33,621 nucleotides of DNA from Nitrosospira sp. GTDB taxonomy: Bacteria; Pseudomonadota; Gammaproteobacteria; Burkholderiales; Nitrosomonadaceae. The first letter of the stretch is position 1. Every line of letters starts with the position of its first letter. Shown in pieces: positions 8,555-26,579 of this stretch. The notes beneath the pieces are model-generated. The model was not told the DNA's origin and ran no database searches. It worked only from the letters and a program-made list of their open reading frames with translations. A program made the position numbers and the translations under genes. The stretch is from contig JACDGV010000027.1 in NCBI GenBank assembly GCA_013821425.1, positions 1 through 33,621 on the forward strand, given 5' to 3'.

Positions 8555-9460
8555 TCAAGTACCAAAAAAATTGATGCTCATTTTTTCAACGTAGAGCTCA
8601 GCGATATAGCGCGAGACCTTATGGCCCACTGCTTCCGTTTCCTGCTCGGCGGACAATGCGAAGATTCCGACCTGGAACAGGTCGATCGAGCCCAACACTT
8701 TACTTCCGGTTGGATCGAGGAATTCGATCACCCCCGATAATTCCTCCTCCTGGCTATTCTGACCCTTGACCACGAACTCGTTGAACCATGTTACCCATGG
8801 TCTGATGTCCGCTGCCGAGAATGTGATTTTGAGATTCGGAATCTCGAGTCTCGTCAGCGTACGCGTCGAGAAACGGAAATCGCCCCTAACTTCCGGGACC
8901 AGAACCTGCCTGATTGTAAAGGAGTCGATCTTGCACACGTGGGAACAGGGCAGGTCCCCCACGCGCAGGCGAAAGCTCGAGCGAGGCCATTTCTGTTGCA
9001 TGGTGTCGATTGCATCCGACAGGTTCGACCCGTCACCATCCTTGTCGATTATTTTCTCGGCATCGAACCTGATAGTGAGGAAAGCATCATCCCGGCTATC
9101 TACGTCCAGGGCCGGAAGTCTGATTTCGGTGATCAAGGCGTTATGGAAATGGCGGAACGCCACTGCTCTGCGGTCCGAATTAGCGGCTACGATGTAGCCG
9201 TTCTTACGCACATCCGGCTTGTCCATCGTGGCCCTGATCCAGGCATGCAGGCTCTTGCCCATCGATATGCCGGTCGAGACGACCATGGGCTCGAACGTCA
9301 GTGATGAGATGTTTTTCATGGGTGGGCTGTCTCCGGACGGCGTACTCTCGGTTGCAACCGCACCCTTGACATTGCCGCCTCTGAGGTCCTGGAGAGTGGT
9401 GGGCTCCCCGTTCAGATAAAGCAGCTTGTGGTCTGCAGAATATAAGTGGTAAATAGGCAT
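8555..9460 (-). CDS. Stand-alone phage-tail-tube-like protein (gp19/Hcp fold)
   Basis: The 301-residue product contains VSTGISMGKSLHAWI (61-75) and FRHFHNALITEIRLPALD (102-119), followed by DAFLTIRFDAEKI. This pattern of a helix-bearing target region, then a conserved 'HNAxITEIxxPALD' strand pair, is that of the conserved phage-tail/gp19-like proteins that form tail tubes in phages and contractile injection systems. This protein is about twice the length of a simple tube protomer, and the second half repeats related strand-rich patterns. No sheath, baseplate or ATPase gene is in view. AAGGAGA eight bases before the ATG sets the start. The family assignment is from pattern recognition only; a role in an injection apparatus is inferred and uncertain. 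Confidence 0.55.
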   Translation of the reverse strand: MPIYHLYSADHKLLYLNGEPTTLQDLRGGNVKGAVATESTPSGDSPPMKNISSLTFEPMVVSTGISMGKSLHAWIRATMDKPDVRKNGYIVAANSDRRAVAFRHFHNALITEIRLPALDVDSRDDAFLTIRFDAEKIIDKDGDGSNLSDAIDTMQQKWPRSSFRLRVGDLPCSHVCKIDSFTIRQVLVPEVRGDFRFSTRTLTRLEIPNLKITFSAADIRPWVTWFNEFVVKGQNSQEEELSGVIEFLDPTGSKVLGSIDLFQVGIFALSAEQETEAVGHKVSRYIAELYVEKMSINFFGT

Positions 9461-15252: not shown

Positions 15253-15360
15253 ACTATTCATGGTATTGCTGAGTTTGCTATTCTTACTGTCAGGAAAGAG
15301 CGTGAAAAACGGGTCTTTTCTCAGCATCGCTCCTGTACGAAAGTCGTTCGGGGGGATGGG

Positions 15361-15496
15361 CTATATTCCGGGGAATGCCATGGGCTCATGAAGAAGCGGG
15401 AGTAGCCGTCCGGGATTGGACCAGGCGGAATAGTCGTGCCACGTGCGCATGAGAGCGAAACCGGACAAGCGCCACGCCGTCGGTCTGGAAGGCCGG
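15361..15496. repeat. Diverged repeat, copy 1
   Basis: About 136 bases align with 20394-20533 with only small gaps, including GTCCGGGATTGGACCA identical in both. No open frame is shared, so this is probably a decayed element or the relic of a segment duplication. In both places it lies on the 5' side (minus strand) of CVNH-type sequence. Confidence 0.6.
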
Positions 15497-15566: not shown

Positions 15567-16556
15567 CTAAGGCCTTGGCGTGTCTAATCGTGGTGTGGCA
15601 GCGACCACAACAAAGTCGCTCTTCAATACCCCAGACTCGATCAGCCCATCCTCGATATCGAAGAGCATCTGCAGTATGCGAATTGAGTTAGGGTCTTCCT
15701 GCCTGAAATTTCCTGCTATGCCATGCAGAAGAAATTGCAATAACGAGCCACCGCAAGGATTGAGTGTGTGAATGTCGAAGTAATCTTCCACAACCTTCAA
15801 TATGTCTTGCGAACGTACCGCCTCCGAAGGATCCACGCGTACGACTTCAACAGGATCAGGCAACGGTGGGAGGTGCTGAACCTGGCCGAACGAGCCGTTG
15901 ACGAACGACAGCCGGTAGCGCTCCGGAATCATGGCGAAAGCATGCGTGATGGCAGCGACCTGCTGCGGCCCGAACGCGAAGTGATTGGCTCCGACATACT
16001 CATTGAAAAAAAGCCAGCCGTTTGGCTTTAGCGAGCCGCGCACACGCTCGCATACAGCCTCTAGTTCTTGAATGTGGTGCAGTGAACCGTTGAACCACAC
16101 CGCGTCATAATGGACCTCCGGCAGGTTTGTTTTTTCGACGTCTGTTACGCGATAGTCAATAGACCGTGCGCCGATCGAGACGGCTTCCCTGAGCGCCGTT
16201 TCAATCGCGGCCGGCGCAATATCGATTGCATCGCAGTGATGAAAAGCGTTGAGCCGGAACAGGTCCCTTTCGAGCGCGCCGCTACCGCAGCCGATACTCA
16301 ACATATTCGCGACCGGCCCATTGGTATCTAAGAAAGCGCCGACACAGTATTGGACCCATGCGGGAAAATCACTTCCGCGGCAAGCAAGCTGGCGGAAGCG
16401 TTTTTGGACCTCCGGCACCGCCAACCAATAGATTTCGGGCGAGAACGCATCTGACCCGGCCATATTTTCTGACCAATGATTGGCAGTAATTCCTTTCGGG
16501 TTTTCGGGCATTGGGACGGCACGCGTACCTAAACTGCTAAACAATTTCTTGAGCAT
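15567..16556 (-). CDS. SAM-dependent methyltransferase of the glycan cluster
   Basis: The 329-residue product is a class I methyltransferase. SAM-binding motif I LSIGCGSGALE lies at residues 86-96, the acidic AIDIAP at 110-115, a VWFNGSLHHI segment follows, and LKPNGWLFFNEYVG is the post-motif strand. Its methyl acceptor is not evident; by context it probably methylates a sugar residue or lipid carrier of the polysaccharide. GAGGGAG six bases before the ATG at 16556 sets the start. This start overlaps the end of the upstream glycosyltransferase by 20 bases, which points to translational coupling. An open frame extends to 16790, but that part is antiprotein-like sequence in the shadow of the glycosyltransferase. 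Confidence 0.82.
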   Translation of the reverse strand: MLKKLFSSLGTRAVPMPENPKGITANHWSENMAGSDAFSPEIYWLAVPEVQKRFRQLACRGSDFPAWVQYCVGAFLDTNGPVANMLSIGCGSGALERDLFRLNAFHHCDAIDIAPAAIETALREAVSIGARSIDYRVTDVEKTNLPEVHYDAVWFNGSLHHIQELEAVCERVRGSLKPNGWLFFNEYVGANHFAFGPQQVAAITHAFAMIPERYRLSFVNGSFGQVQHLPPLPDPVEVVRVDPSEAVRSQDILKVVEDYFDIHTLNPCGGSLLQFLLHGIAGNFRQEDPNSIRILQMLFDIEDGLIESGVLKSDFVVVAATPRLDTPRP

Positions 16557-18102
16557 TAAGGGCTCCCTCGCGATGCACATGCGGCTGCCACGCGCCCCAT
16601 TTGCTTTCAAAATAGGCCTGGTTCTTGTCCCACAGCTTTTGATATGTGCCATTGGCAATAAGCTTCTTGAAGGAGGCCTGTCCGTAGTGATGGACGAAGG
16701 CATCTTCCGCGCACACAGTTCTATAACCGAGATTCCGGGCTCGGCGGCTATAATCGTCGTCCTCGAACATACCGATACCGAATGTCTCATCGAGAAAACC
16801 TATTTTCTCAAAAACTTCGCGACGCATCGCAATGCAAAACATGGCCAACATTGGAATATCGAATATACGACCACGATGTTCCGCGGTATGACAATCCGAA
16901 AAATCGTCCATTTGATCCAGGCACGAATATCCAACGTCGATTTTTGCTTCGTTGCCGACTGAATTCGTCACAGGGCCGACCAGCCCGATTTCAGGCACGG
17001 CCAGATGACGCAACAGTGGATCGACCCAGCCCTTCGGCACCGCAGTATCGTTGTTGAGCAGCACCAAAAAATTGCCTTGCGCCAGCCGAAGGCCCTGATT
17101 ATTTGCCGCCGCAAATCCGAGGTTATCGTCGTTGAGAATGATCTTCACGAGCGGCTTACTACGAGCTAAATAGCACAGGTAGTTGCGAGTATCGTCAGCC
17201 GACGCGTTGTCCACGATAATTACCTCGTAGTTCGGATATGTCGTATTCCGAAAGATACTCTCGATACAGAGCTGCGTAAGCTGTAAATTGTTGTAAGTAA
17301 CAACGATGATTGAGACCTTTGAATAGAGATTGGTAATGGCGCAAAGGGTGTCGTCGAAGCGGTTTTTCCAGTCGTTTGCGCGGGCAAGCTCTATGCGGTG
17401 GGTCGCAAGGTCAAGCGCTCGTTCGCCTAACGCAAGTCCGATTTTTTCGATGAATTCCTTGGGGCCGTTGGCAAAATAGACGAATTCTTCATAGCACTTC
17501 ATTTCTTCAGGCGGCACCGACACCACCGGTTTCCCTGCACTGATAAATTCGTAAAACTTGACGGGGTCAACTGCATGGGTAACGCTGTAAAGACGGAATG
17601 GAATCAGACACACGTCGAAATGATAGAGATAAAGCGGCATGTCCGAGTACGGCTTCCTGCCGAGCAAATGCACGTTCGGCATCAATTCGAGACCCGCGAG
17701 ATCCGTTACAAAAACGTCTCCAATGAGCACTAAGCTCCAATCGGGCCGCTGCCTTGCTATTGCGACCAGCAGGTCATAATCGATCCATTCGGCCAGCGCG
17801 CCATAAAACCCGATGACCGGGCGCTCGATTTCAGGCAGCAGGCTATTCGGAATGCAATGGCGGGTAAAGAATGAAAAGTCGACGCCATTTCTGACGAGCA
17901 CACAATTAGCGTTACGCCCAGACCACTTTTTGTGCAGTAAAGAGGCAGTGACAGTTACCAGATCGGCTTCCGCAACAAGCACTTCCTCCTGTTTTAATAA
18001 CGCTGCTCCAATATTTGGGAAATCAAGCCAGTCATCCATGCAGTCATATTGAATTCGCCAGCCGCGATCCATTCGGAGCTGAACAGCCAGAGGGCGCTTC
18101 AA
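16537..18102 (-). CDS. Glycosyltransferase, GT4 C-half plus GT2 (3' part of broken gene)
   Basis: The frame opens at a TTG at 18102, with no ribosome binding site, in the middle of a GT4-like domain. WRIQYDCMDDWLDFPN aligns with YDCMDHHGGF of the block A enzyme, followed by VIGFYGALAEWID and DPVKFYEFISAG. From about residue 263 a GT2 domain follows: VSIIVVTYNNLQLT, VDNASADDT, LLNNDTAV and MFEDDDYSRR. The missing N-terminal half of the GT4 domain is encoded in another frame at the 3' end of the gene upstream (18044-19960). I therefore read it as the downstream part of a formerly continuous gene, perhaps still translated by re-initiation. Its role is polysaccharide assembly. Confidence 0.75.
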   Translation of the reverse strand: MKRPLAVQLRMDRGWRIQYDCMDDWLDFPNIGAALLKQEEVLVAEADLVTVTASLLHKKWSGRNANCVLVRNGVDFSFFTRHCIPNSLLPEIERPVIGFYGALAEWIDYDLLVAIARQRPDWSLVLIGDVFVTDLAGLELMPNVHLLGRKPYSDMPLYLYHFDVCLIPFRLYSVTHAVDPVKFYEFISAGKPVVSVPPEEMKCYEEFVYFANGPKEFIEKIGLALGERALDLATHRIELARANDWKNRFDDTLCAITNLYSKVSIIVVTYNNLQLTQLCIESIFRNTTYPNYEVIIVDNASADDTRNYLCYLARSKPLVKIILNDDNLGFAAANNQGLRLAQGNFLVLLNNDTAVPKGWVDPLLRHLAVPEIGLVGPVTNSVGNEAKIDVGYSCLDQMDDFSDCHTAEHRGRIFDIPMLAMFCIAMRREVFEKIGFLDETFGIGMFEDDDYSRRARNLGYRTVCAEDAFVHHYGQASFKKLIANGTYQKLWDKNQAYFESKWGAWQPHVHREGALNAQEIV

Positions 18103-19960
18103 GAGATAGCAGGCAAGCTTGGATGTTGTCGTCGCTCATACCCTCCGTATAGAAATCCTGGGTAGTGTGCATCGACAGTGCAACCTCAAAAATCCCTTGG
18201 GAAACTTCGTTCAGACTATAAGCCTGCCCGCCTGATGAGCCCCGGGAAGCAACAACGTAAAAAACGCGATAACCCTGTTCAGCGAACTGTCGCATCATTT
18301 GTTGCGGCCGCTGGAACCGCGCCGACCAATCGATATTCGCGAAACAGACGACGTCGAAATTGCTGCTTGTGGTCAAACCAGGTTGATGGCTACATACGGC
18401 AGGCATGGCGGCGAAAGGCCGATCCGGGGCAGCTGGTCCATTGGGTGCATGGCCACCACCTCTAATGCCCGTGCTGCTGCTTGGCTTTCGCTTGCGCTTA
18501 GACCATAACACCATCAAGCGGCTGCGTTCTTGCAGCGTTAGACCAAAACGCATCAGCCGCATGAGAAAACGTAAAGGCTTCGTGATCTGCCACGACCGCG
18601 TGTTTTTCAGAAAATGGATGCCCGCCAGGGCAGTGTCTCGCTCGATTATCGCCGCGTCGCGCTCAGCCAGAAACTGGGTTCCGAGTTCACCTACATGCCC
18701 CTGTTGAATGGCGTATTCGGCCGGATATATCTCAGGGCGTTCTGTTGTGGCTTTCAGCAATGCAACATACCCCTTTTCAGATTTTGCTGCGTTTTCCGGG
18801 GCAGCTTCGAGCAAATTGGGGAGAGACTGCCAAAACCGGCTCAGTATTGATTGAGTATTAACTCTTCCTTCCCTGATAATTTTGGCAATATGATCCCAAT
18901 GTTCGTCAAGTTGCTCTAAAGCGATCTGTGCTGCTAAAGAAGGGGGACCTTTTCCAAGTCGTGTCAAAAACTGGTGGGGGTCAATCTCGCTTTCTCCGGG
19001 AAGAGCAAAAATGGTTTCAAACTCTGACAGGGCTGTGTACTTGCCAGCAGAAAGGTCTGCCGAACTGAAGACCGGTACTCCACACGCAAGTGCTGTGATC
19101 GCCAGGTGATAACTGTGGCCGATAACGGCTTCTGCCTGGCTGATTAACTCTGCTAGAAGAAGTGGAGGGGGCCAGGAAGGCAACTGGATAGAGTCTGGCA
19201 AACCATCTCCTATGATCGTTTCGTGGTCGCCGAGTACCGGTCCAATAGGGAGGATTAGAAACCGGATATCTTTGAATAAGCTCCGGTGATTTTGTATGAA
19301 TCGAATGAAGGGGGTAATACGGTAGACGGCTTGAACAATAATGTAAGGTCCTGTAAATCCTGAAAGCTCCCGCAGGATGTCCAGTTCTGCTGATTGCTGT
19401 CGATTATCAACTAATCGGGAAATTCCAAAGGCGGTATCAGGCAGTACTGCTATCCGGGAGTTATCGCAAAAATGCTTGAGCGCTTCTTGTGAAGGCTTGT
19501 CACGCACCCGAATGTATGGGCTGTTCTGAAGAACTAATCTCATTAATGGTTCTGCCCACCGGGGAATATTGTTGCAATGCATGCCCGGCGCGTTCCAGAT
19601 CAGTGGAATTCCATGCTGCAAGGCGATCAAGGCCGGCGTGAGCCAATAGCCAGTGGGGTGGTGTATCCCTGAAGTTGGCGGGCCATATGCGGGAGCAACG
19701 TCTTTGTCAAACCGGATGATAAACCCACCGCCAATGAGGACGCCGTCGAGGCTCATGGCGAGGTGCGGTAATTCGGTCACTGATGTGACTATATATGGCC
19801 ACTCTGGCGGAGTTTTGGCGTGGTAGGAAAATCGGTGAAGCTTCACCCGACCCAACCGCTTCGCCAATTCTGCCTCGGCAATAATAGGGAAGAGTAAATC
19901 CCCATAGTTCTGAACGTCGAAGGTGCCGCATATAGCAATTTCCCACACGCGTTCTTTCAT
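18044..19960 (-). CDS. Polysaccharide pyruvyl transferase fused to GT4 N-half (5' part of broken gene)
   Basis: The product has 638 residues. Residues 1 to about 330 match the polysaccharide pyruvyl transferase family, which adds pyruvate ketals to sugars: GTFDVQNYGDLLFP, LIGGGFIIRFD, WNAPGMHCNN, IRVRDKPSQEAL, ILPIGPVLGDHE, and IGHSYHLAITALACGVPVFSS. A linker with ERDAAIIERDTAL and RSWQITKPLRF follows. From about residue 540 the start of a GT4 domain appears (VVCFANIDWSARFQRPQQMM). After QACLLS the frame leaves the homologous sequence and ends in unrelated residues at 18044, while the matching sequence resumes one frame over. GAGG before the ATG sets the start. First gene of the block B transcript. 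Confidence 0.8.
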   Translation of the reverse strand: MKERVWEIAICGTFDVQNYGDLLFPIIAEAELAKRLGRVKLHRFSYHAKTPPEWPYIVTSVTELPHLAMSLDGVLIGGGFIIRFDKDVAPAYGPPTSGIHHPTGYWLTPALIALQHGIPLIWNAPGMHCNNIPRWAEPLMRLVLQNSPYIRVRDKPSQEALKHFCDNSRIAVLPDTAFGISRLVDNRQQSAELDILRELSGFTGPYIIVQAVYRITPFIRFIQNHRSLFKDIRFLILPIGPVLGDHETIIGDGLPDSIQLPSWPPPLLLAELISQAEAVIGHSYHLAITALACGVPVFSSADLSAGKYTALSEFETIFALPGESEIDPHQFLTRLGKGPPSLAAQIALEQLDEHWDHIAKIIREGRVNTQSILSRFWQSLPNLLEAAPENAAKSEKGYVALLKATTERPEIYPAEYAIQQGHVGELGTQFLAERDAAIIERDTALAGIHFLKNTRSWQITKPLRFLMRLMRFGLTLQERSRLMVLWSKRKRKPSSSTGIRGGGHAPNGPAAPDRPFAAMPAVCSHQPGLTTSSNFDVVCFANIDWSARFQRPQQMMRQFAEQGYRVFYVVASRGSSGGQAYSLNEVSQGIFEVALSMHTTQDFYTEGMSDDNIQACLLSLEAPSGCSAPNGSRLANSI

Positions 19961-20364: not shown

Positions 20365-20388
20365 CAACGTGTTGAGTGTGGTTGCCTG
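20365..20388 (-). repeat. Relic matching the CVNH gene
   Basis: These 24 bases match 14900-14923, inside the CVNH-like part of the haem protein gene, at 23 of 24 positions. On the minus strand they read QATTLNTL against QATTLNSL. The match extends weakly beyond. It is likely the last trace of a second CVNH-type gene. Confidence 0.5.
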
Positions 20389-20393
20389 ATGCG

Positions 20394-20533
20394 CTCTATT
20401 TCAGGGGAATACCATGGCTCATGTAGAAGCGGGGGCGGACGTCCGGGATTGGACCAAAGGCAGAATACGGGTGCCATCTACATCAGCCATGCGAAACTGG
20501 ACAAGCATCCCGCTGTCGATTTGACAGGCTGGG
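20394..20533. repeat. Diverged repeat, copy 2
   Basis: This is the partner of 15361-15496, in the same orientation, with long identical runs such as GTCCGGGATTGGACCA and conserved flanking blocks GGGGAAT.CCAT and GCGAAAC.GGACAAGC. It lies six bases from the CVNH relic. Confidence 0.6.
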
Positions 20534-20675: not shown

Positions 20676-23444
20676 CTACTGCTGCTCCGCGCCGACGCTT
20701 TCCGCCACGTCTTCATCGAAGATGATGGTCCGGGAGCGAAACTCTGTGTCGGGCGCGTCCCAGGAATTGAGGCGGCGCGGGCGGCGCAGCACGTTCGTCC
20801 CGCAATGAATCTCGCCGTCGCCAGTGTGGTAGTACCAGCTGTCCACGAAATGGATCTGCACCCCGAGTTCGTCGGCCACGGCAGCGGTGAACAATTCGAA
20901 CAGATCGACCATACCATCATCGATAGCGAGCCGCGTGAAATCTTTTCGCAGATATCCGTGACTATCGAAATGACGCTCATTGGGCCTGATGATGCGGCGC
21001 TCGCGTTCCGCTGCGTCGGAGCCGGGAAAACTGTCGCGAAACGCGTCGATCACGTCCTGTGCGGTGCGCATACCGCCATAGGAGGTTCGGATGAGACCGC
21101 TCGAGGAATAGACTATTGCGGGGTCGACGGCTTCCACCCAGTATTGTTCACGCGTCATCCTGCGCCTGGCGATCAGCCGCTGCCCGACCCGGTCGCGGAT
21201 TGTTCCCGGCATACCGAGTTGGCGCATGGCTGTGCGGACCACGAAGACGGCGTCAGTGCGGTACATGCGGGGGCCGTACGGTTTGGGCACCAGAAGGTGG
21301 CCATTGACCACCTGGAGGTTGGCCATGTTAGGTGAGAAGGCCGCGGTCGGCTGCTGCCATGGTGCGGCGTTAAATAATCCGAGATGCTCTACCCTGTCCC
21401 ACAGCACCGGCACTGGCAGGACCGGCACGCCGAGCTCCTGCGCCAGAATCTGCCGGCTGGGTTCGAGCATACTGGTATCGATGCCGTCGTTTACGCTCTC
21501 GCCGTTAACTTCGCGCTCGCAGTAGATGATCTCGGACGGCGTGATGTCCGCTGGATAGCGACGGTCGGCGCCTTCACCCGGCACAAAGCCGATCCGATGA
21601 ACATTGAATCTGCCCGAACCGCCGAATTCAGACGCAAGCTGCATATAGATCGACGGCGGGTCTTGCGACTGCGATACTCGCCCTGGCCGAGCAGGGGGGT
21701 GGACATGCCGCCACGCCTTGCCACGGAAGAGCCGAGTCACGGGTGAAGTGCCATCGGTCATCAGCCGCGGCATTACCCCCGAGGGCCGGCTGGGTGTGTT
21801 GATCCGATCGGGATGATGGATCGGCAGTCCGCCGCGATAGCGCAGTTCTGCCTCGCGCAAGAGCGTCATGGCTGCACGCGATGACGCATGCAGTATCGAA
21901 AAACCGGACGTGGGGTGAGGAACCACCGCCATCATCTCGTCCACGTGCCCAACCTTGAGCCACGCGGTATTGATTTCAACGATGGGCTGTTTCCTTTGCT
22001 TCGCGAGAAGCCGCAGGAGATCGGGATCCATCAGTTCTCCGCCGTCGGGAAAAATGAAGTTGCCCAGGAGGATCTTGCCGAGCGGCGCGCCGATCACAGG
22101 TGGCGTCGACTCGAGATTGCCGCCGTAGTTGGCGGAGTCGTGCATCTGATTGCCGCGCATGAACAGCCGCTGGGCCGTGTCGGCCGGCAGGGATACGGTC
22201 TGGGCGGCGACGAGCGTGTGAACAGACAGGCTGTCACCGGAACCCGCGGTGCCATGGTCAGCGCGGGCCTCGCGCACCAGTTGTTCGGCAGCATCCTTCA
22301 ATCCTCTAAGCAGTAGAGCGCGTTCCGGCTCGCCATCGGTGGCGGCGCGGTCGATGGTTTCCTTGAGCCGTGTCAGCTTCCGCCCAAGATTCCGCAGGAT
22401 GGTCACCCAGTCGTCATCCGGTGCCGGCGCCCACTGCGGGTCGGCCAGCGCGCCGAAACGGTCGAGCTGAGCGGAGACGCGCAGAATACGCCCGATGCTC
22501 GCGATCCAGTCCCCAATTCGGCGGAAGTCGAGGCGCAGGACGCCACCGTCGCTCGTATTGACGGAGATGATGCGGTCCCACAGGTTGCCGAACACGGCGA
22601 TGTCACGCGAGCGGAAATGAGTGCGGACGAAATCCTCCAGATTGTCCGTGACGGTCTCATTGGAGTTCTCGTGGCGCAGGCGAGGCAGGTGGAGGATGAT
22701 CTGCCGCGCCCGGTCCGCACCTTCCATCATCGCGTGCTGATACTGATCCTGAAGCCAGGTATCGCCGCCGGTAAGGTTGACCGGCACTTCGACGAGCGGC
22801 ACGGAAGCGGCCGCGAGGGCGCGCCGCACATCCTCCACTGAGGGCCGGTTGTCCGGCTTACTGACGATATACATTCGCGTCGCGGTGGTGAGGCAATCGT
22901 CGAGGATAACTGGCGCGACAGAGAACCGGCCAGTGTCCTCCACGTGAGCATTATTCGACGCGTCGACGCGAAGAAGCCCGAGTTCAAAACGCGTCTCCTC
23001 CCGGGTATCCATCCGATAGCTGAGGTCGAGATTAGAGAGACGGCCGAAACTCGCGCCTGCAATCGTGCGTACCTGAAGCGTGAGTTTGAGCGCGCCGCTG
23101 GCTGGCACCTGCGGAAGTTCGAACACCGCCGGATCGCCCGGGCGGTGCGGCACGATCACGCCCGAGCAGCGTATTACAAGCCGATCACCAGTACCTAAGG
23201 CCCCGGTTGGAACTCGGATTTCGAGGGGCAGCAGTTCGTCATCCCGGGGGAATGCAGTTGCGATGTCATAGTCCGCGTCCGGAGTTCCGCCACTGGAGAC
23301 ACGCGCGGGAAGAGCGCGCTGATCGCGGTCGAGGTTGGCCACCACCACCGCGCCGAGCCAATCGAGACGGGCAGCGCGTTCGGCTGCATTGCCCGTCAGC
23401 CGGCCGTTTCGGTCGAAGTCGGCGTGCAGTTCAATGCCCGGCAC
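20676..23444 (-). CDS. Bacterial peptidylarginine deiminase (PAD family)
   Basis: The 922-residue product aligns with animal PADs, which turn protein arginine into citrulline with Ca2+. A middle domain has acidic loops ADFDRNG (8-14) and ANLDRD (36-41). The catalytic domain shows GDTWLQDQ with Asp233, GNLESTPPV, LKVGHVDEM with His500 and Asp502, FSPNMANL, PKPYGP, and EIHCGTNVLRRP with Cys881. These are the counterparts of human PAD4 Asp350, His471, Asp473 and Cys645. Two insertions (about 290-430 and 540-660) make it longer than the 663-residue human enzyme, and the animal N-terminal domain is absent. The start is GTG at 23444, one base after the upstream TAA; the open frame back to 23738 is not protein-like. 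No signal peptide is seen. Protein citrullination is inferred; the target is unknown. Confidence 0.85.
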   Translation of the reverse strand: MPGIELHADFDRNGRLTGNAAERAARLDWLGAVVVANLDRDQRALPARVSSGGTPDADYDIATAFPRDDELLPLEIRVPTGALGTGDRLVIRCSGVIVPHRPGDPAVFELPQVPASGALKLTLQVRTIAGASFGRLSNLDLSYRMDTREETRFELGLLRVDASNNAHVEDTGRFSVAPVILDDCLTTATRMYIVSKPDNRPSVEDVRRALAAASVPLVEVPVNLTGGDTWLQDQYQHAMMEGADRARQIILHLPRLRHENSNETVTDNLEDFVRTHFRSRDIAVFGNLWDRIISVNTSDGGVLRLDFRRIGDWIASIGRILRVSAQLDRFGALADPQWAPAPDDDWVTILRNLGRKLTRLKETIDRAATDGEPERALLLRGLKDAAEQLVREARADHGTAGSGDSLSVHTLVAAQTVSLPADTAQRLFMRGNQMHDSANYGGNLESTPPVIGAPLGKILLGNFIFPDGGELMDPDLLRLLAKQRKQPIVEINTAWLKVGHVDEMMAVVPHPTSGFSILHASSRAAMTLLREAELRYRGGLPIHHPDRINTPSRPSGVMPRLMTDGTSPVTRLFRGKAWRHVHPPARPGRVSQSQDPPSIYMQLASEFGGSGRFNVHRIGFVPGEGADRRYPADITPSEIIYCEREVNGESVNDGIDTSMLEPSRQILAQELGVPVLPVPVLWDRVEHLGLFNAAPWQQPTAAFSPNMANLQVVNGHLLVPKPYGPRMYRTDAVFVVRTAMRQLGMPGTIRDRVGQRLIARRRMTREQYWVEAVDPAIVYSSSGLIRTSYGGMRTAQDVIDAFRDSFPGSDAAERERRIIRPNERHFDSHGYLRKDFTRLAIDDGMVDLFELFTAAVADELGVQIHFVDSWYYHTGDGEIHCGTNVLRRPRRLNSWDAPDTEFRSRTIIFDEDVAESVGAEQQ

Positions 23445-23445
23445 C

Positions 23446-24246
23446 TTACCTAGGCTCCGCTCTCGATCCAGCTCCGTCAGCCTGCTTCTGCCACGTCGGC
23501 AGTTGGTCGTCGGACCGCAGCCTGACGAGCGAGGTAGGCACCCGCACCTCCCAGGGCTCGCCCACCGGGATTTCAGCACCGGGACGTCCGAGCCGCTCGG
23601 CGAGCTCGTCCGCGATGGGCAGGAACGTATCGTCGGAAATCGCCGGCAGGCTGCCCCCGAGCCAGGGCTCACCAAACAGCCTAAAATGGTCCACCGCCTC
23701 GGCAAAGCCGGGTCTGACCGGGATCTGAACGCGTGCATAGCCCGCCTTCAAAAAGGCCTCGAACTCGGTGTCGTCGTCCTCGATCACGATCTTGTCCAGC
23801 CAAGTCGATTTGCGGCCCCATAAATAGGCATACGGCACCCAGGACATGTTCTCCCACTCGAAGGCCTGTTCAAAGAAACGCACGTATGGGCCCTCGAGAG
23901 AGGATTCCCCAAAACTGATCTGCGGCAAATTGCCGGCGCCATTGTCAATGGCGTCGAACTTGTCGTAGTGTTGCAGCGTCAGCGTCGATATCGCCAGACG
24001 CTTGATCTCGTCCACCATCAGGGCACGGTTGCTTGCGGACGGGCCGGAGACGATCTCCTGGGGAGCCTCGGCCTCCAGCTCGGCGAGCTTCGTTTCGTAT
24101 TCCGAGAGCCGCGCGCGGTAGGCCTGAACCAGCTTGGCATGAGTCTCCGCCCGCCACAGGTCCGTCGCCCGCTCAGTCGCCTCGCAAATCACTTCCACGG
24201 CAACGGCGACATCGCCCACCTTGTCAGTCACCATGGCGAAGGGCAC
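23446..24246 (-). CDS. C-terminal part of frameshifted PAD-linked large protein
   Basis: The 266 residues begin mid-protein (MPFAMVTDKVGDVAV). They carry a helical segment at about 28-65 (RARLSEYETKLAELEAEA), then FGESSLEGPYVRFFEQAFEWENM, DDTEFEAFLKAGYARVQIPVRPGF and PWEVRVPTSLVRL. Upstream bases up to about 24303 read on in the same frame (HAGQPWVWSTALDEE), so this is not an independent gene start. The frame is reached from the preceding piece by removing one C from the C6 run near 24310. I believe 23446-26579 once encoded one protein of about 1043 residues. Its TAA is followed after one base by the deiminase GTG start, implying coupled translation. No known enzyme domain was recognised. Confidence 0.65.
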   Translation of the reverse strand: MPFAMVTDKVGDVAVAVEVICEATERATDLWRAETHAKLVQAYRARLSEYETKLAELEAEAPQEIVSGPSASNRALMVDEIKRLAISTLTLQHYDKFDAIDNGAGNLPQISFGESSLEGPYVRFFEQAFEWENMSWVPYAYLWGRKSTWLDKIVIEDDDTEFEAFLKAGYARVQIPVRPGFAEAVDHFRLFGEPWLGGSLPAISDDTFLPIADELAERLGRPGAEIPVGEPWEVRVPTSLVRLRSDDQLPTWQKQADGAGSRAEPR

Positions 24247-24344: not shown

Positions 24345-26579
24345 TCATCCCACACTGCAGCCACCTGCCCCACCGTTGCACGTATCGCCTGATAGCCGTC
24401 GGGCACCTGGATACGGGTTGAATTGGTGAACTCCTGGTCCTTGTCCTCGCCGCCGGTGTTGAAGTCGTATGATTCGGTCATGAAGGGGTTCGGGCGGCGA
24501 CTTGACGTCTGTCGCACCGTACAGGGTGACATAGGTCTCGTAGTTATCCTCTGTGAGCTGGGAGGGGTTGAGGTCGAAGGCTGGAGGTTTTTCTAGCTCG
24601 ATGGCGGCCGATCGCCGCGAGCGGAAAGCCTCCATCAGCAGCGCGGCCGGCTCGGGAATCATGATGTCGAACAGGGTGCGCGGGCCGTAGTTGAACACCT
24701 GGGCCTCGTAGACCTTGGTGACCCACTGATATACGCCGGACACGTGCGCGCTGCCAGCCGTGTTGTCGAACGTGTGCTGGTCCATTTCCTCAATCTCGCG
24801 CGTAACTCGGCGGGTTTCGCGGGTCAGCACCCGCTCGGTGATTTTTTCCGAGGCCTTCTGGGTGGCCTGCCGCGCCGTTTCCGATGCCGCGCGCTCCGCT
24901 TCCTGCGACTTGCGCTCCCAGGATGCTTCTACCGACGCGCGGAACTCGACTGTCGGGCCATAGCTGGCCTTGATGCTGGCCGATCCCTTCACGGCTGTCT
25001 CCTCCTGAAGCGCCTTCTCGCTTTCACGGCGGATCTCGAAGCGGTCGGTCGTCTCGAGCGAGCGTTCGGTAGTCGTTTCCACCTCCCGTTCGGTGAGGAT
25101 GATCGTTTCGGTTTCCAGTCGCGTGCGGTGGACGCGGTCTTTCTTCTCACCCTTCAGAATGTTGGCAATATGCGAGACCTCCGCGCCTTCGTACCCCGTC
25201 AGCTGCTGCTTGACCAGCAGCAGGTCCATTATGCCGGCGGACTCGATATCGGCATGGGTCGTGGGCACGCCGTCGCCGACGGGGAAAAGGATGTCCGGAA
25301 TGTGGCCAATGATTGTGGAAGGCGACATCGAATACAACACGGGCATAGGGCTGGATGCGATCGCGACCGTTGTGTTGCCAATCCTGCGGAAAGTCCTCTG
25401 CGCAATAGGCTGGATTAGCCTCTGCGCCTCGGAATGAACGCGGTGCTTTTCCGCAGTGAGTTTCTGCACCGTCCGGGCGACGGGCTCGCCTGGATCGAGC
25501 CCCAGTTCCTTCATCAAGTCCCGGGTATCACCACTCAGCTTTTCGGTGGTTTCCTTGGCTAGACGCAGGCCGACGAGGCCCGGCATTACCGGCTTGAAAT
25601 CGGGTGAGCCGGTAAGCGCGATCCGCACGCCGCGCCCCAGCGGCAGGGCAGGTTCCGCCGTACCCAGTTTGTCCACTGTCAAGTTTTTCAACGCTTCGCG
25701 CACGACGGATGAACTACCGATATTCACGGTGGTCTGGTTCTCGCCTGGAGGGCGCGTCACGTCTCCGACGGACGCCAGCAACGTCGCCCGCAGCGACGCT
25801 TGCCGAATGGTGACCTCCTGCTCGAACAACTTTGTCGGCCGCAGGTCAGCTGGCGGCAAACGTTCGGGCGCGGCCTCCTGCACCATCACGGAATAACCGT
25901 GGGGGCGGACACCGCGCAGTTCGTCAAGCGCCTTGCCGAGCAACTCATGTCTGGCAGCTAGCGCCTTAAGCCTGTCCGCCACCTCGTCCCGCTCTGGCCG
26001 CGGTGGCGTGGACGGACGAGCCGGCAAGACCGCTCCCGGCACCCGCATCCCCCGTCGATGTACGGCCACGAGCTCGGCCAGATCTCGTGGGAACGCGGGA
26101 TCCGCATCAAAGCGCGCGGCGAGCTCGGCCACCCGCAGTATGGCAGCGAGGCGCCGGATTGGGCGCTTGTGGTGCTCAGGGGAGAGCTTTATGGCAAGGA
26201 TGCTGTCCTTTATGGGATCGATCCGGTCCTGAACAGCCGAAGCCGCGATAAATGAACCGGGCGCGTCGCCGAGCGTCTCGTTCAATGCTGCCTCGACAGC
26301 CGCGCGATCGGCCGTGCCGGCGTCGATCAACCCGTCGATCGCGGTAGAGGCCTCCTCCAGCGCCCGCAGCTCGGCAACCTTGTTGATGCTGCTTACGAAT
26401 CGGTCGGAGTTGATGAACCCCCCAGCAAGCGCGCGCAGCTTGTCGCGTCGGCCGGGGCCATTCGGTATTGCACCCGCGTCGTTCTGAAACTGGCTGTTTG
26501 CAGTCAGATCAATCGGATCGATCTCATCGCGGGATCGGTTGGGCTCCCGGATGATGTTGAATCGGAATAGTGTTTCCAT
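24345..26579 (-). CDS. N-terminal part of frameshifted PAD-linked large protein, unknown function
   Basis: This frame gives 744 residues, about the first 698 of them authentic. No signal peptide is seen. Residues about 20-300 are mostly helical with Ala/Arg/Asp-rich sequence. About 490-640 form a long charged, probably coiled-coil tract (ETETIILTEREVETTTERS, then Ser/Ala/Glu-rich), followed by YQWVTKVYEAQVFNYGPRT and FDIMIPEPAALLMEA. Near base 24485 an extra C in a C4 run changes frame. The true continuation (FMTESYDFNTGGED...WDEWVVAVIIGQRP) lies in a second frame to about 24310, then a third frame to 23446. AAAGGAG before the ATG and a strong promoter set the start. I do not recognise the family. 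A structural or scaffold role beside the deiminase is speculation. Confidence 0.7.
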   Translation of the reverse strand: METLFRFNIIREPNRSRDEIDPIDLTANSQFQNDAGAIPNGPGRRDKLRALAGGFINSDRFVSSINKVAELRALEEASTAIDGLIDAGTADRAAVEAALNETLGDAPGSFIAASAVQDRIDPIKDSILAIKLSPEHHKRPIRRLAAILRVAELAARFDADPAFPRDLAELVAVHRRGMRVPGAVLPARPSTPPRPERDEVADRLKALAARHELLGKALDELRGVRPHGYSVMVQEAAPERLPPADLRPTKLFEQEVTIRQASLRATLLASVGDVTRPPGENQTTVNIGSSSVVREALKNLTVDKLGTAEPALPLGRGVRIALTGSPDFKPVMPGLVGLRLAKETTEKLSGDTRDLMKELGLDPGEPVARTVQKLTAEKHRVHSEAQRLIQPIAQRTFRRIGNTTVAIASSPMPVLYSMSPSTIIGHIPDILFPVGDGVPTTHADIESAGIMDLLLVKQQLTGYEGAEVSHIANILKGEKKDRVHRTRLETETIILTEREVETTTERSLETTDRFEIRRESEKALQEETAVKGSASIKASYGPTVEFRASVEASWERKSQEAERAASETARQATQKASEKITERVLTRETRRVTREIEEMDQHTFDNTAGSAHVSGVYQWVTKVYEAQVFNYGPRTLFDIMIPEPAALLMEAFRSRRSAAIELEKPPAFDLNPSQLTEDNYETYVTLYGATDVKSPPEPLHDRIIRLQHRRRGQGPGVHQFNPYPGARRLSGDTCNGGAGGCSVG

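What the first reader, a model, noticed from the sequence alone, without database searches (positions are those of the whole stretch)
20676..23444. Animal-type peptidylarginine deiminase in a bacterium, catalytic set complete
Sequence shows Asp233 (WLQDQ), His500-x-Asp502 (VGHVDE) and Cys881 (HCGTN) in the same order and local context as human PAD4 Asp350, His471/Asp473 and Cys645, plus FSPNMANL and PKPYGP blocks. Bacterial relatives of animal PADs are known, notably in cyanobacteria, but a 922-residue version with two large insertions and no animal N-terminal domain, coupled to a giant partner, is unusual. Citrullination in this organism is inferred.
Basis: partly seen in the sequence, partly recalled or inferred. 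Interest (0 to 1): 0.8.

Follow-up and report, generated by a model that had tools for sequence, protein, structure and literature searches.

The report
Bacterial arginine deiminase with cargo-swapping partner
A bacterium, probably an ammonia oxidiser, carries a complete-looking relative of the human protein-citrullinating enzymes, but not of the animal kind: it belongs to a bacterial branch found beside a large unnamed partner gene, and that partner sits next to different enzymes in other microbes.

Summary
The minus-strand ORF 20676-23444 (922 aa, GTG start) is a peptidylarginine deiminase: Pfam PAD 148 bits (cut-off 25), fold match to human PAD4 (Foldseek E 1.2e-28), Asp233/His500/Asp502/Cys881 at the catalytic positions; middle domain present, PAD_N absent. 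'Animal-type' does not hold: 1e-23 against human PAD2, where a human-like cyanobacterial PAD scores 2e-166. It lies in a separate clade with a long insert 1 (208-222 aa against 56-82 in 74 other PADs) and a lost Ca1 ligand (Glu353 to Gln/Lys). In seven loci of three phyla this PAD lies next to the same ~1000-aa partner: six directly downstream (8-nt overlap to 16-nt gap), one divergent (Leptolyngbya). No library model fits the partner. In the window it is split over three frames; a same-genus genome has it intact. The partner also occurs without PAD, in four phyla and an archaeon, beside patatins, amine oxidases, toxin-domain proteins and mostly unnamed genes; within this genus three kinds of neighbour occur. 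The PADs form one clade, their partners do not: the enzyme appears to be exchanged. Best reading: a two-gene effector module with PAD as one interchangeable enzyme. Delivery, target and activity are inferred.

The parts
20676..23444 (-). Long peptidylarginine deiminase, 922 aa, GTG start, PAD_M + PAD_C, no PAD_N
23070..23444 (-). Start of the middle (PAD_M-like) domain, residues 1-125, with N37, D39, D41 (PAD4 N153, D155, D157)
   Evidence: Pfam PAD_M model itself not hit at E<=10
22746..22748 (-). Catalytic Asp233 (PAD4 Asp350)
22737..22739 (-). Gln236 in place of Ca1 ligand Glu353
   Evidence: Q (6) or K (1) in the 7 long PADs measured, E in 64 of 84 PADs
21945..21947 (-). Catalytic His500 (PAD4 His471)
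21939..21941 (-). Catalytic Asp502 (PAD4 Asp473)
20802..20804 (-). Catalytic Cys881 (PAD4 Cys645)
22137..22556 (-). Insert 1, residues 297-436, mostly helical; tracks the partner gene
21495..21824 (-). Insert 2, residues 541-650
20907..21263 (-). Insert 3, residues 728-846
24483..26579 (-). Partner gene, N-terminal part in its first frame (starts METLFRF)
   Evidence: blastx to the intact same-genus partner, 68.5% over 699 aa
24293..24493 (-). Partner gene, middle part in a second frame
   Evidence: 77.6% over 67 aa
23446..24309 (-). Partner gene, C-terminal part in a third frame; its stop ends 1 nt before the PAD GTG
   Evidence: 81% over 286 aa; junction

Best explanation
The gene is a member of the PAD family with altered Ca2+ sites that works as the enzyme half of a two-gene effector module. 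The other half is a ~1000-aa partner (N-terminal FRFxxLRxP-like motif, a long charged helix - beta-hairpin - helix, a beta-sandwich, a conserved FEWxxMxYxFYPYFWG-like region) that is constant across the family, while the enzyme beside it is exchanged: PAD here, patatin, amine oxidase, toxin-domain proteins or unnamed proteins elsewhere. Shown: PAD fold and catalytic residues, repeated adjacency, exchange of neighbours, toxin-domain genes in some partner loci. Inferred: the partner carries or docks the enzyme (perhaps through PAD insert 1), the pair acts on another cell or its proteins, and the chemistry is arginine to citrulline on protein.
For: Partner next to long PAD in 7 loci of Pseudomonadota, Bacteroidota and Cyanobacteriota (window, L141, L008, L009, L010, L013, L138); gaps 1, 13, -8, 3, 16, 3 nt and divergent in L138. 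A distant partner homologue lies one gene away from the Planctomycete L011 PAD (hhalign prob 92, E 6.8e-7). Insert 1: 208-222 aa in window, L138, L008, L009, L010, L013, L011; 56-82 aa in the 74 others of 81 measurable PADs. Partner without PAD: 6 of 398 phylum genomes incl. own, 9 of 247 Bacteroidota incl. the known one, 14 plasmid records incl. an archaeal one; no further PAD in held DNA of those loci. 23 of 28 partner loci have a same-strand gene within 100 nt downstream (20, 3 from annotations). Named neighbours: patatin (downstream in L098 and L105, upstream in L099), amine oxidase, Gln_amidase toxin domain three genes downstream in two Bacteroidota loci, one with an Imm35-like gene, EndoU just under cut-off, SIR2 as second gene. 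Same genus: partner in 8 of 23 genomes incl. own (one marginal), PAD in 2 of 23; amine oxidase (3) or a 357-aa gene (2) in the other five read. PADs one clade at 99; PAD label needs at least 3 changes on starred branches of the partner tree.
Against: No secretion gene seen beside these PADs (by eye; blastp of L014 T6SS proteins hit only L085 and L019) and no shared gene after PAD: 22 ORFs from 8 loci, no cross-match. No signal peptide seen by eye. Most neighbours are unnamed; Mur-ligase and amine-oxidase neighbours are not classical toxins; in the five other same-genus loci the spacing is loose (138-285 nt). No control was run for how often any gene has a close downstream neighbour. Partner absence beside the 74 other PADs rests on tblastn of the window pieces against held flanks and on 15 whole genomes. 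Partner model is poor (pLDDT 53.5), fold matches weak (best E 3.9e-3). The Ca1 change could mean weak activity. The window's own partner is split in three frames.
Confidence: 0.45

Rival explanations
1. Intracellular defence module: the partner senses infection or damage and switches on the neighbouring enzyme, which stops the cell itself. PAD would citrullinate host or phage proteins.
For: Patatin, SIR2 and nuclease neighbours are effector types also used in phage defence (recalled); sporadic distribution; no export signal seen by eye; the Ensifer copy lies by SIR2 and AAA genes, the SIR2 protein weakly like ThsA.
Against: No PADLOC model hits the 3 partners or the PAD scanned. Gln_amidase domains, one with an Imm35-like gene, point to intercellular toxins. 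Amine oxidase and Mur-ligase neighbours do not fit.
Confidence: 0.25
2. Self-modifying structural protein: the partner is a surface or scaffold protein and PAD matures it by citrullinating its arginine-rich helix; other enzymes modify other partners.
For: Partner has a long Arg-rich helix; close adjacency.
Against: Arg content of PAD-linked partners (0.058-0.085) overlaps that of partners without PAD (0.031-0.088). Patatin, nuclease or papain-toxin neighbours have no role here.
Confidence: 0.12
3. In this genome the module is a decaying relic: the partner is frame-broken and the intact PAD is an orphan. (This can hold together with any of the other readings.)
For: Two frame changes in the window partner; intact copy in a same-genus genome.
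Against: No stop codon inside PAD, and 62% and 60% identity to two homologues over the whole length. A further apparent frame change in a glycosyltransferase near 18090 suggests assembly indels.
Confidence: 0.3
4. An animal-type PAD acquired from the animal/cyanobacterial clade.
For: Same catalytic residues; a cyanobacterium has a 60% identical PAD.
Against: No PAD_N; Ca1 and Ca2 ligands replaced; 1e-23 against 2e-166 for a human-like cyanobacterial PAD; the 60% cyanobacterial PAD is a long PAD of the same separate clade.
Confidence: 0.03

Closest known systems
Human PAD4/PAD2 (protein-arginine deiminase, PF03068)
   Same: PAD_M and PAD_C fold, Asp/His/Asp/Cys catalytic set, Trp347, Gln349, Arg372 and Arg374 equivalents
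   Different: No PAD_N; three insertions; Glu353 and Glu351 Ca ligands replaced by Gln; 14-16% identity in the Foldseek alignments
Bacterial PADs outside the animal clade (PMC8826395)
   Same: PAD_M + PAD_C, no PAD_N, scattered distribution
   Different: Insert 1 and the partner gene; Ca1 Glu replaced, where that paper calls site 1 conserved
PADs beside type VI secretion genes (L014 Nitrospirota, L085 Deltaproteobacteria; found here)
   Same: PAD near delivery genes (VgrG, ClpV in both; DcrB and PAAR in L014)
   Different: No partner in those genomes, no insert 1, outside the long-PAD clade
Polymorphic toxin systems
   Same: Constant component with exchanged enzymes; Gln_amidase, EndoU-like and Imm35-like genes in some Bacteroidota partner loci
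   Different: Exchanged part is a separate gene, and no shared immunity-like gene follows PAD
Tc toxin TcA subunits
   Same: Weak, sub-threshold Foldseek similarity of the partner
   Different: No TcA Pfam model among the hits of 28 partners at E<=0.1; far shorter; model confidence too low to decide

Membership tests
Peptidylarginine deiminase (PF03068) | Catalytic-domain HMM above gathering score | tested here: met
   148.2 bits, cut-off 25
Peptidylarginine deiminase (PF03068) | Asp350/His471/Asp473/Cys645 equivalents | tested here: met
   D233, H500, D502, C881. Invariance of His and Cys over the 84 PADs is partly built in: the scan patterns hold the Cys motif and a stretch next to the His
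Peptidylarginine deiminase (PF03068) | PAD fold | tested here: met
   Foldseek E 1.2e-28, TM 0.67 by target
Peptidylarginine deiminase (PF03068) | Four residues in one pocket | not testable with these tools
   no coordinates; pdb_via unavailable
Peptidylarginine deiminase (PF03068) | Citrullinating activity | not testable with these tools
   needs enzyme
Animal-type PAD (clade Ai of PMC8826395) | PAD_N domain | tested here: not met
   protein starts in PAD_M; no PAD_N hit at E<=10
Animal-type PAD (clade Ai of PMC8826395) | Ca2 site ligands | tested here: not met
   Glu351 to Gln234, Asn373 to Leu256 (PAD4 ligand list recalled)
Animal-type PAD (clade Ai of PMC8826395) | Ca-switch Asp (PAD4 D388) | tested here: inconclusive
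   D in window, L013, L011; N, Q, N, G in L138, L008, L009, L010
Animal-type PAD (clade Ai of PMC8826395) | Groups with human-like cyanobacterial PAD | tested here: not met
   separate starred clade; animal rows were not in the tree
Polymorphic toxin system | Constant component with exchanged toxin/enzyme | tested here: met
   no chance control for adjacency
Polymorphic toxin system | Immunity gene after the toxin | tested here: not met
   no shared gene after PAD; Imm35-like only in L130, below cut-off
Type VI secretion effector | Adjacent T6SS genes | tested here: not met
   none seen beside window or partner-linked PADs; own genome as a whole not searched
Tc toxin A subunit | TcA sequence models / fold | tested here: inconclusive
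   no Pfam TcA hit; Foldseek E 3.9e-3 on a pLDDT 53.5 model

The most novel reading that the evidence does not exclude
A previously unnamed kind of two-gene effector system, spread over at least four bacterial phyla and one haloarchaeon, in which a constant ~1000-aa partner with a helix - beta-hairpin - helix takes up exchangeable enzymes, and in which one lineage has turned peptidylarginine deiminase into a partner-dependent protein-citrullinating effector with a changed Ca1 site.
Probability: 0.35. Interest if true: 0.82.

Novelty: new variant of a known kind. Interest (0 to 1): 0.62.

Why it matters
What bacteria use PADs for is not stated in the parts of PMC8826395 that I read. A fixed gene partner, a clade-only insert and a clade-only Ca-ligand change give a concrete handle on what one bacterial PAD does. 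The partner family has no model over cut-off in the libraries tried and lies beside several other enzymes, so one experiment on it would inform many genomes.

Tried and rejected
Viral and phage origin: no relative of PAD in viral contigs, none of the partner in viral contigs or phage records; PAD was not searched in phage records. Host name: no plasmid shares the window transposase by megablast; amoA is not found in the own assembly but is in three copies in each of three single-contig same-genus genomes, so an ammonia-oxidising relative of Nitrosomonas, probably Nitrosospira (inference). Partner identity by PDB sequence profile: one chance-level hit, E 0.19. A charge-poor hairpin as sign of membrane insertion: median 11th percentile over 34 partners, not decisive. 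A tail-tube-like gene in the window has no relative in the other held loci. Paper searches (listings only except PMC8826395) showed no title or abstract start on a PAD with T6SS, a polymorphic toxin or a partner gene; the library lacks most subscription journals. Rows dropped: 23 PADs, mostly near-duplicate Actinomycetes, before the tree (84 to 61); 3 of 84 PADs could not be measured for insert 1 (L012, L025, L049). L012 is cut by its contig end. L129 was missed by my ORF filter and is not in A7; read later, it has an intact partner, an unnamed 640-aa ORF downstream and no PAD.

Full report
What is there. The minus-strand ORF 20676-23444 encodes 922 aa from a GTG that lies 1 nt after the stop of the upstream gene. 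The in-frame ATG at 23738 would overlap the partner; relatives start where the GTG is (L009, L010, L013, L141), so the short form is preferred. All four PAD matches in the 3.14-Mb genome lie in this one ORF. The window is a whole contig of that genome.

Is it a PAD. Yes: PF03068 at 148.2 bits, PAD2/PAD4 by phmmer at about 1e-23, a confident model (pLDDT 86.3, pTM 0.91) whose first 45 PDB matches are PAD1-PAD4 structures (3b1u E 1.2e-28, TM 0.67 by target, 16% identity). A 45-sequence profile aligns to PAD4 from chain residue 112 to the end, i.e. PAD_M plus PAD_C without PAD_N. D233, H500, D502 and C881 are the catalytic residues; W230, Q232, R255 and R257 match PAD4 W347, Q349, R372 and R374 (PAD4 roles recalled). 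Invariance of His and Cys over 84 PADs is partly built into the search patterns.

How it differs. Mapping 84 PADs on one profile: the stretch from the catalytic Asp to the GGN block is 208-222 aa in window, L138, L008, L009, L010, L013 and L011, and 56-82 aa in the 74 others that could be measured (3 could not). Inserts 2 and 3 are also long in these seven (182-216 and 140-159 aa), but some other PADs have a long insert 2, and L014 and L052 a long insert 3. At E<1e-5 the insert 1 HMM hits only these PADs, their G660 relative and overlapping locus copies. The Ca1 ligand Glu353 is Gln in six and Lys in one of the seven, against Glu in 64 of 84; Glu351 (Ca2) is Gln in all seven. The seven plus truncated L012 form one clade with SH-aLRT 99 in a 61-row tree (quick method). 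A human-like cyanobacterial PAD (L072) scores 2e-166 against PAD2 and lies elsewhere. So the enzyme is a PAD but not of the animal type.

The partner. Upstream lies a gene whose product matches, in three successive frames, one intact 1042-aa protein of a same-genus genome (68.5%, 77.6%, 81%). Whether the breaks are real or assembly errors is open; another apparent break lies in a glycosyltransferase near 18090. The same partner stands before long PADs in L008, L009, L010 and L013 and divergently in Leptolyngbya PCC 7375 (L138), whose PAD is 60% identical over 931 columns. A distant homologue lies one gene from the L011 PAD, the gene between being weakly like Amidase_6, below cut-off. No model over cut-off fits the partner: Pfam and PHROGs on 28 members (PHROGs best E 0.018), NCBIfam and PADLOC on 3 members each.

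The partner without PAD. It was found in 6 of 398 genomes of the phylum including the own, 9 of 247 Bacteroidota including the known one and 14 plasmid records including an archaeal one. In the DNA held for those loci no further PAD was found. Of the 28 loci in A7, 23 have a same-strand gene within 100 nt downstream (20, one of them a doubtful 82-aa ORF; three from annotations). I ran no control for chance adjacency. Neighbours with names are PAD, patatin, amine oxidase, SIR2 as second gene, Mur-ligase-like, EndoU and Het-C-like below cut-off, a tail-collar protein, and three genes downstream in two unnamed Bacteroidota genomes a Gln_amidase toxin domain, once with an Imm35-like gene below cut-off. 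Most neighbours have no name. In 23 same-genus genomes the partner is in 8 including own (one marginal, 9.9e-4) and PAD in 2. The other five that I read sit by an amine oxidase (G674 and G680 upstream, G678 downstream) or a 357-aa unnamed gene (G661, G666), at 138-285 nt, looser than the PAD pairs.

Exchange. The window partner is nearer to the amine-oxidase-linked partner of G674 (57% over its C-terminal 259 aa) than to the PAD-linked partner of Leptolyngbya (40%), although the PADs are 60% identical. On the partner tree the PAD label needs at least three changes on starred branches, while the PADs form one clade. That tree is 'quick', has long branches, and the window row covers 27% of its columns. 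DNA similarity between window and L141 covers only the module, and module GC is 0.63-0.64 against 0.54 around it in both same-genus genomes, not in Leptolyngbya (0.46 against 0.47). This fits transfer as a unit plus exchange of the enzyme.

Mechanism. I think most likely an effector module: partner as carrier or dock, enzyme as cargo, PAD citrullinating proteins of another cell. The adjacency, the insert that tracks the partner, and the exchange are shown; direction of action, delivery and activity are inferred. Toxin-domain genes in some partner loci and T6SS-linked PADs of other clades (L014, L085) lean towards intercellular action; lack of secretion genes and of any shared gene after PAD (22 ORFs of 8 loci, no cross-match) leans away. 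The partner model (pLDDT 53.5) shows a long helix, a hairpin with a recurring SYGP turn, a second helix and a beta-sandwich; its weak matches to TcA toxins (E 3.9e-3) are not evidence enough.

Literature. PMC8826395: abstract and Results sections on identification, phylogeny and synapomorphies read: PADs in under 1% of bacterial species, 0.43% of Proteobacteria, PAD_M + PAD_C outside the animal clade. Searches for PAD with secretion, polymorphic toxins or interbacterial effectors gave nothing relevant in the listings.

Noticed in passing
window 8555-9460 (-): 301-aa protein matching the Phage_T4_gp19 tail-tube family (1.5e-7, over cut-off); no relative in other held loci.
   Followed up: partly
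window 16537-19960 (-): Glycosyltransferase-like reading appears to change frame near 18090, like the partner; points to assembly indels or decay.
   Followed up: partly
window 15355-15496 and 20388-20532: 75% identical direct repeat on either side of the glycosyltransferase block next to the PAD gene.
   Followed up: no
L014 5014-12171; L085 2-11164: PADs of other clades lie beside T6SS genes (VgrG, ClpV; DcrB and PAAR in L014); in L014 a HEAT-repeat gene follows PAD and relatives of it follow the L052 and L015 PADs.
   Followed up: partly
L005 793-1410; L060, L061, L076, L077, L086 just after PAD: A ~205-aa gene family directly follows the Thalassospira-type PADs; possible immunity or chaperone partner.
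   Followed up: no
L007 4936-6816: Embleya plasmid PAD starts with a signal-peptide-like sequence, so some PADs look exported (by eye).
   Followed up: no
L019 8684-12034: Leptolyngbya PCC 7375 has a second, 1116-aa PAD, 27% identical to the window PAD over 295 columns.
   Followed up: no
own genome G000: No amoA found in this 99.86% complete assembly although three single-contig same-genus genomes have three copies each; perhaps lost in assembly of repeats.
   Followed up: partly
L108 5847-6608; L130 6484-8046; L134 1418-3658: A phage tail-collar domain gene directly follows one partner; genes by two others look tail-fibre-like by eye, but Pfam found nothing in them.
   Followed up: partly
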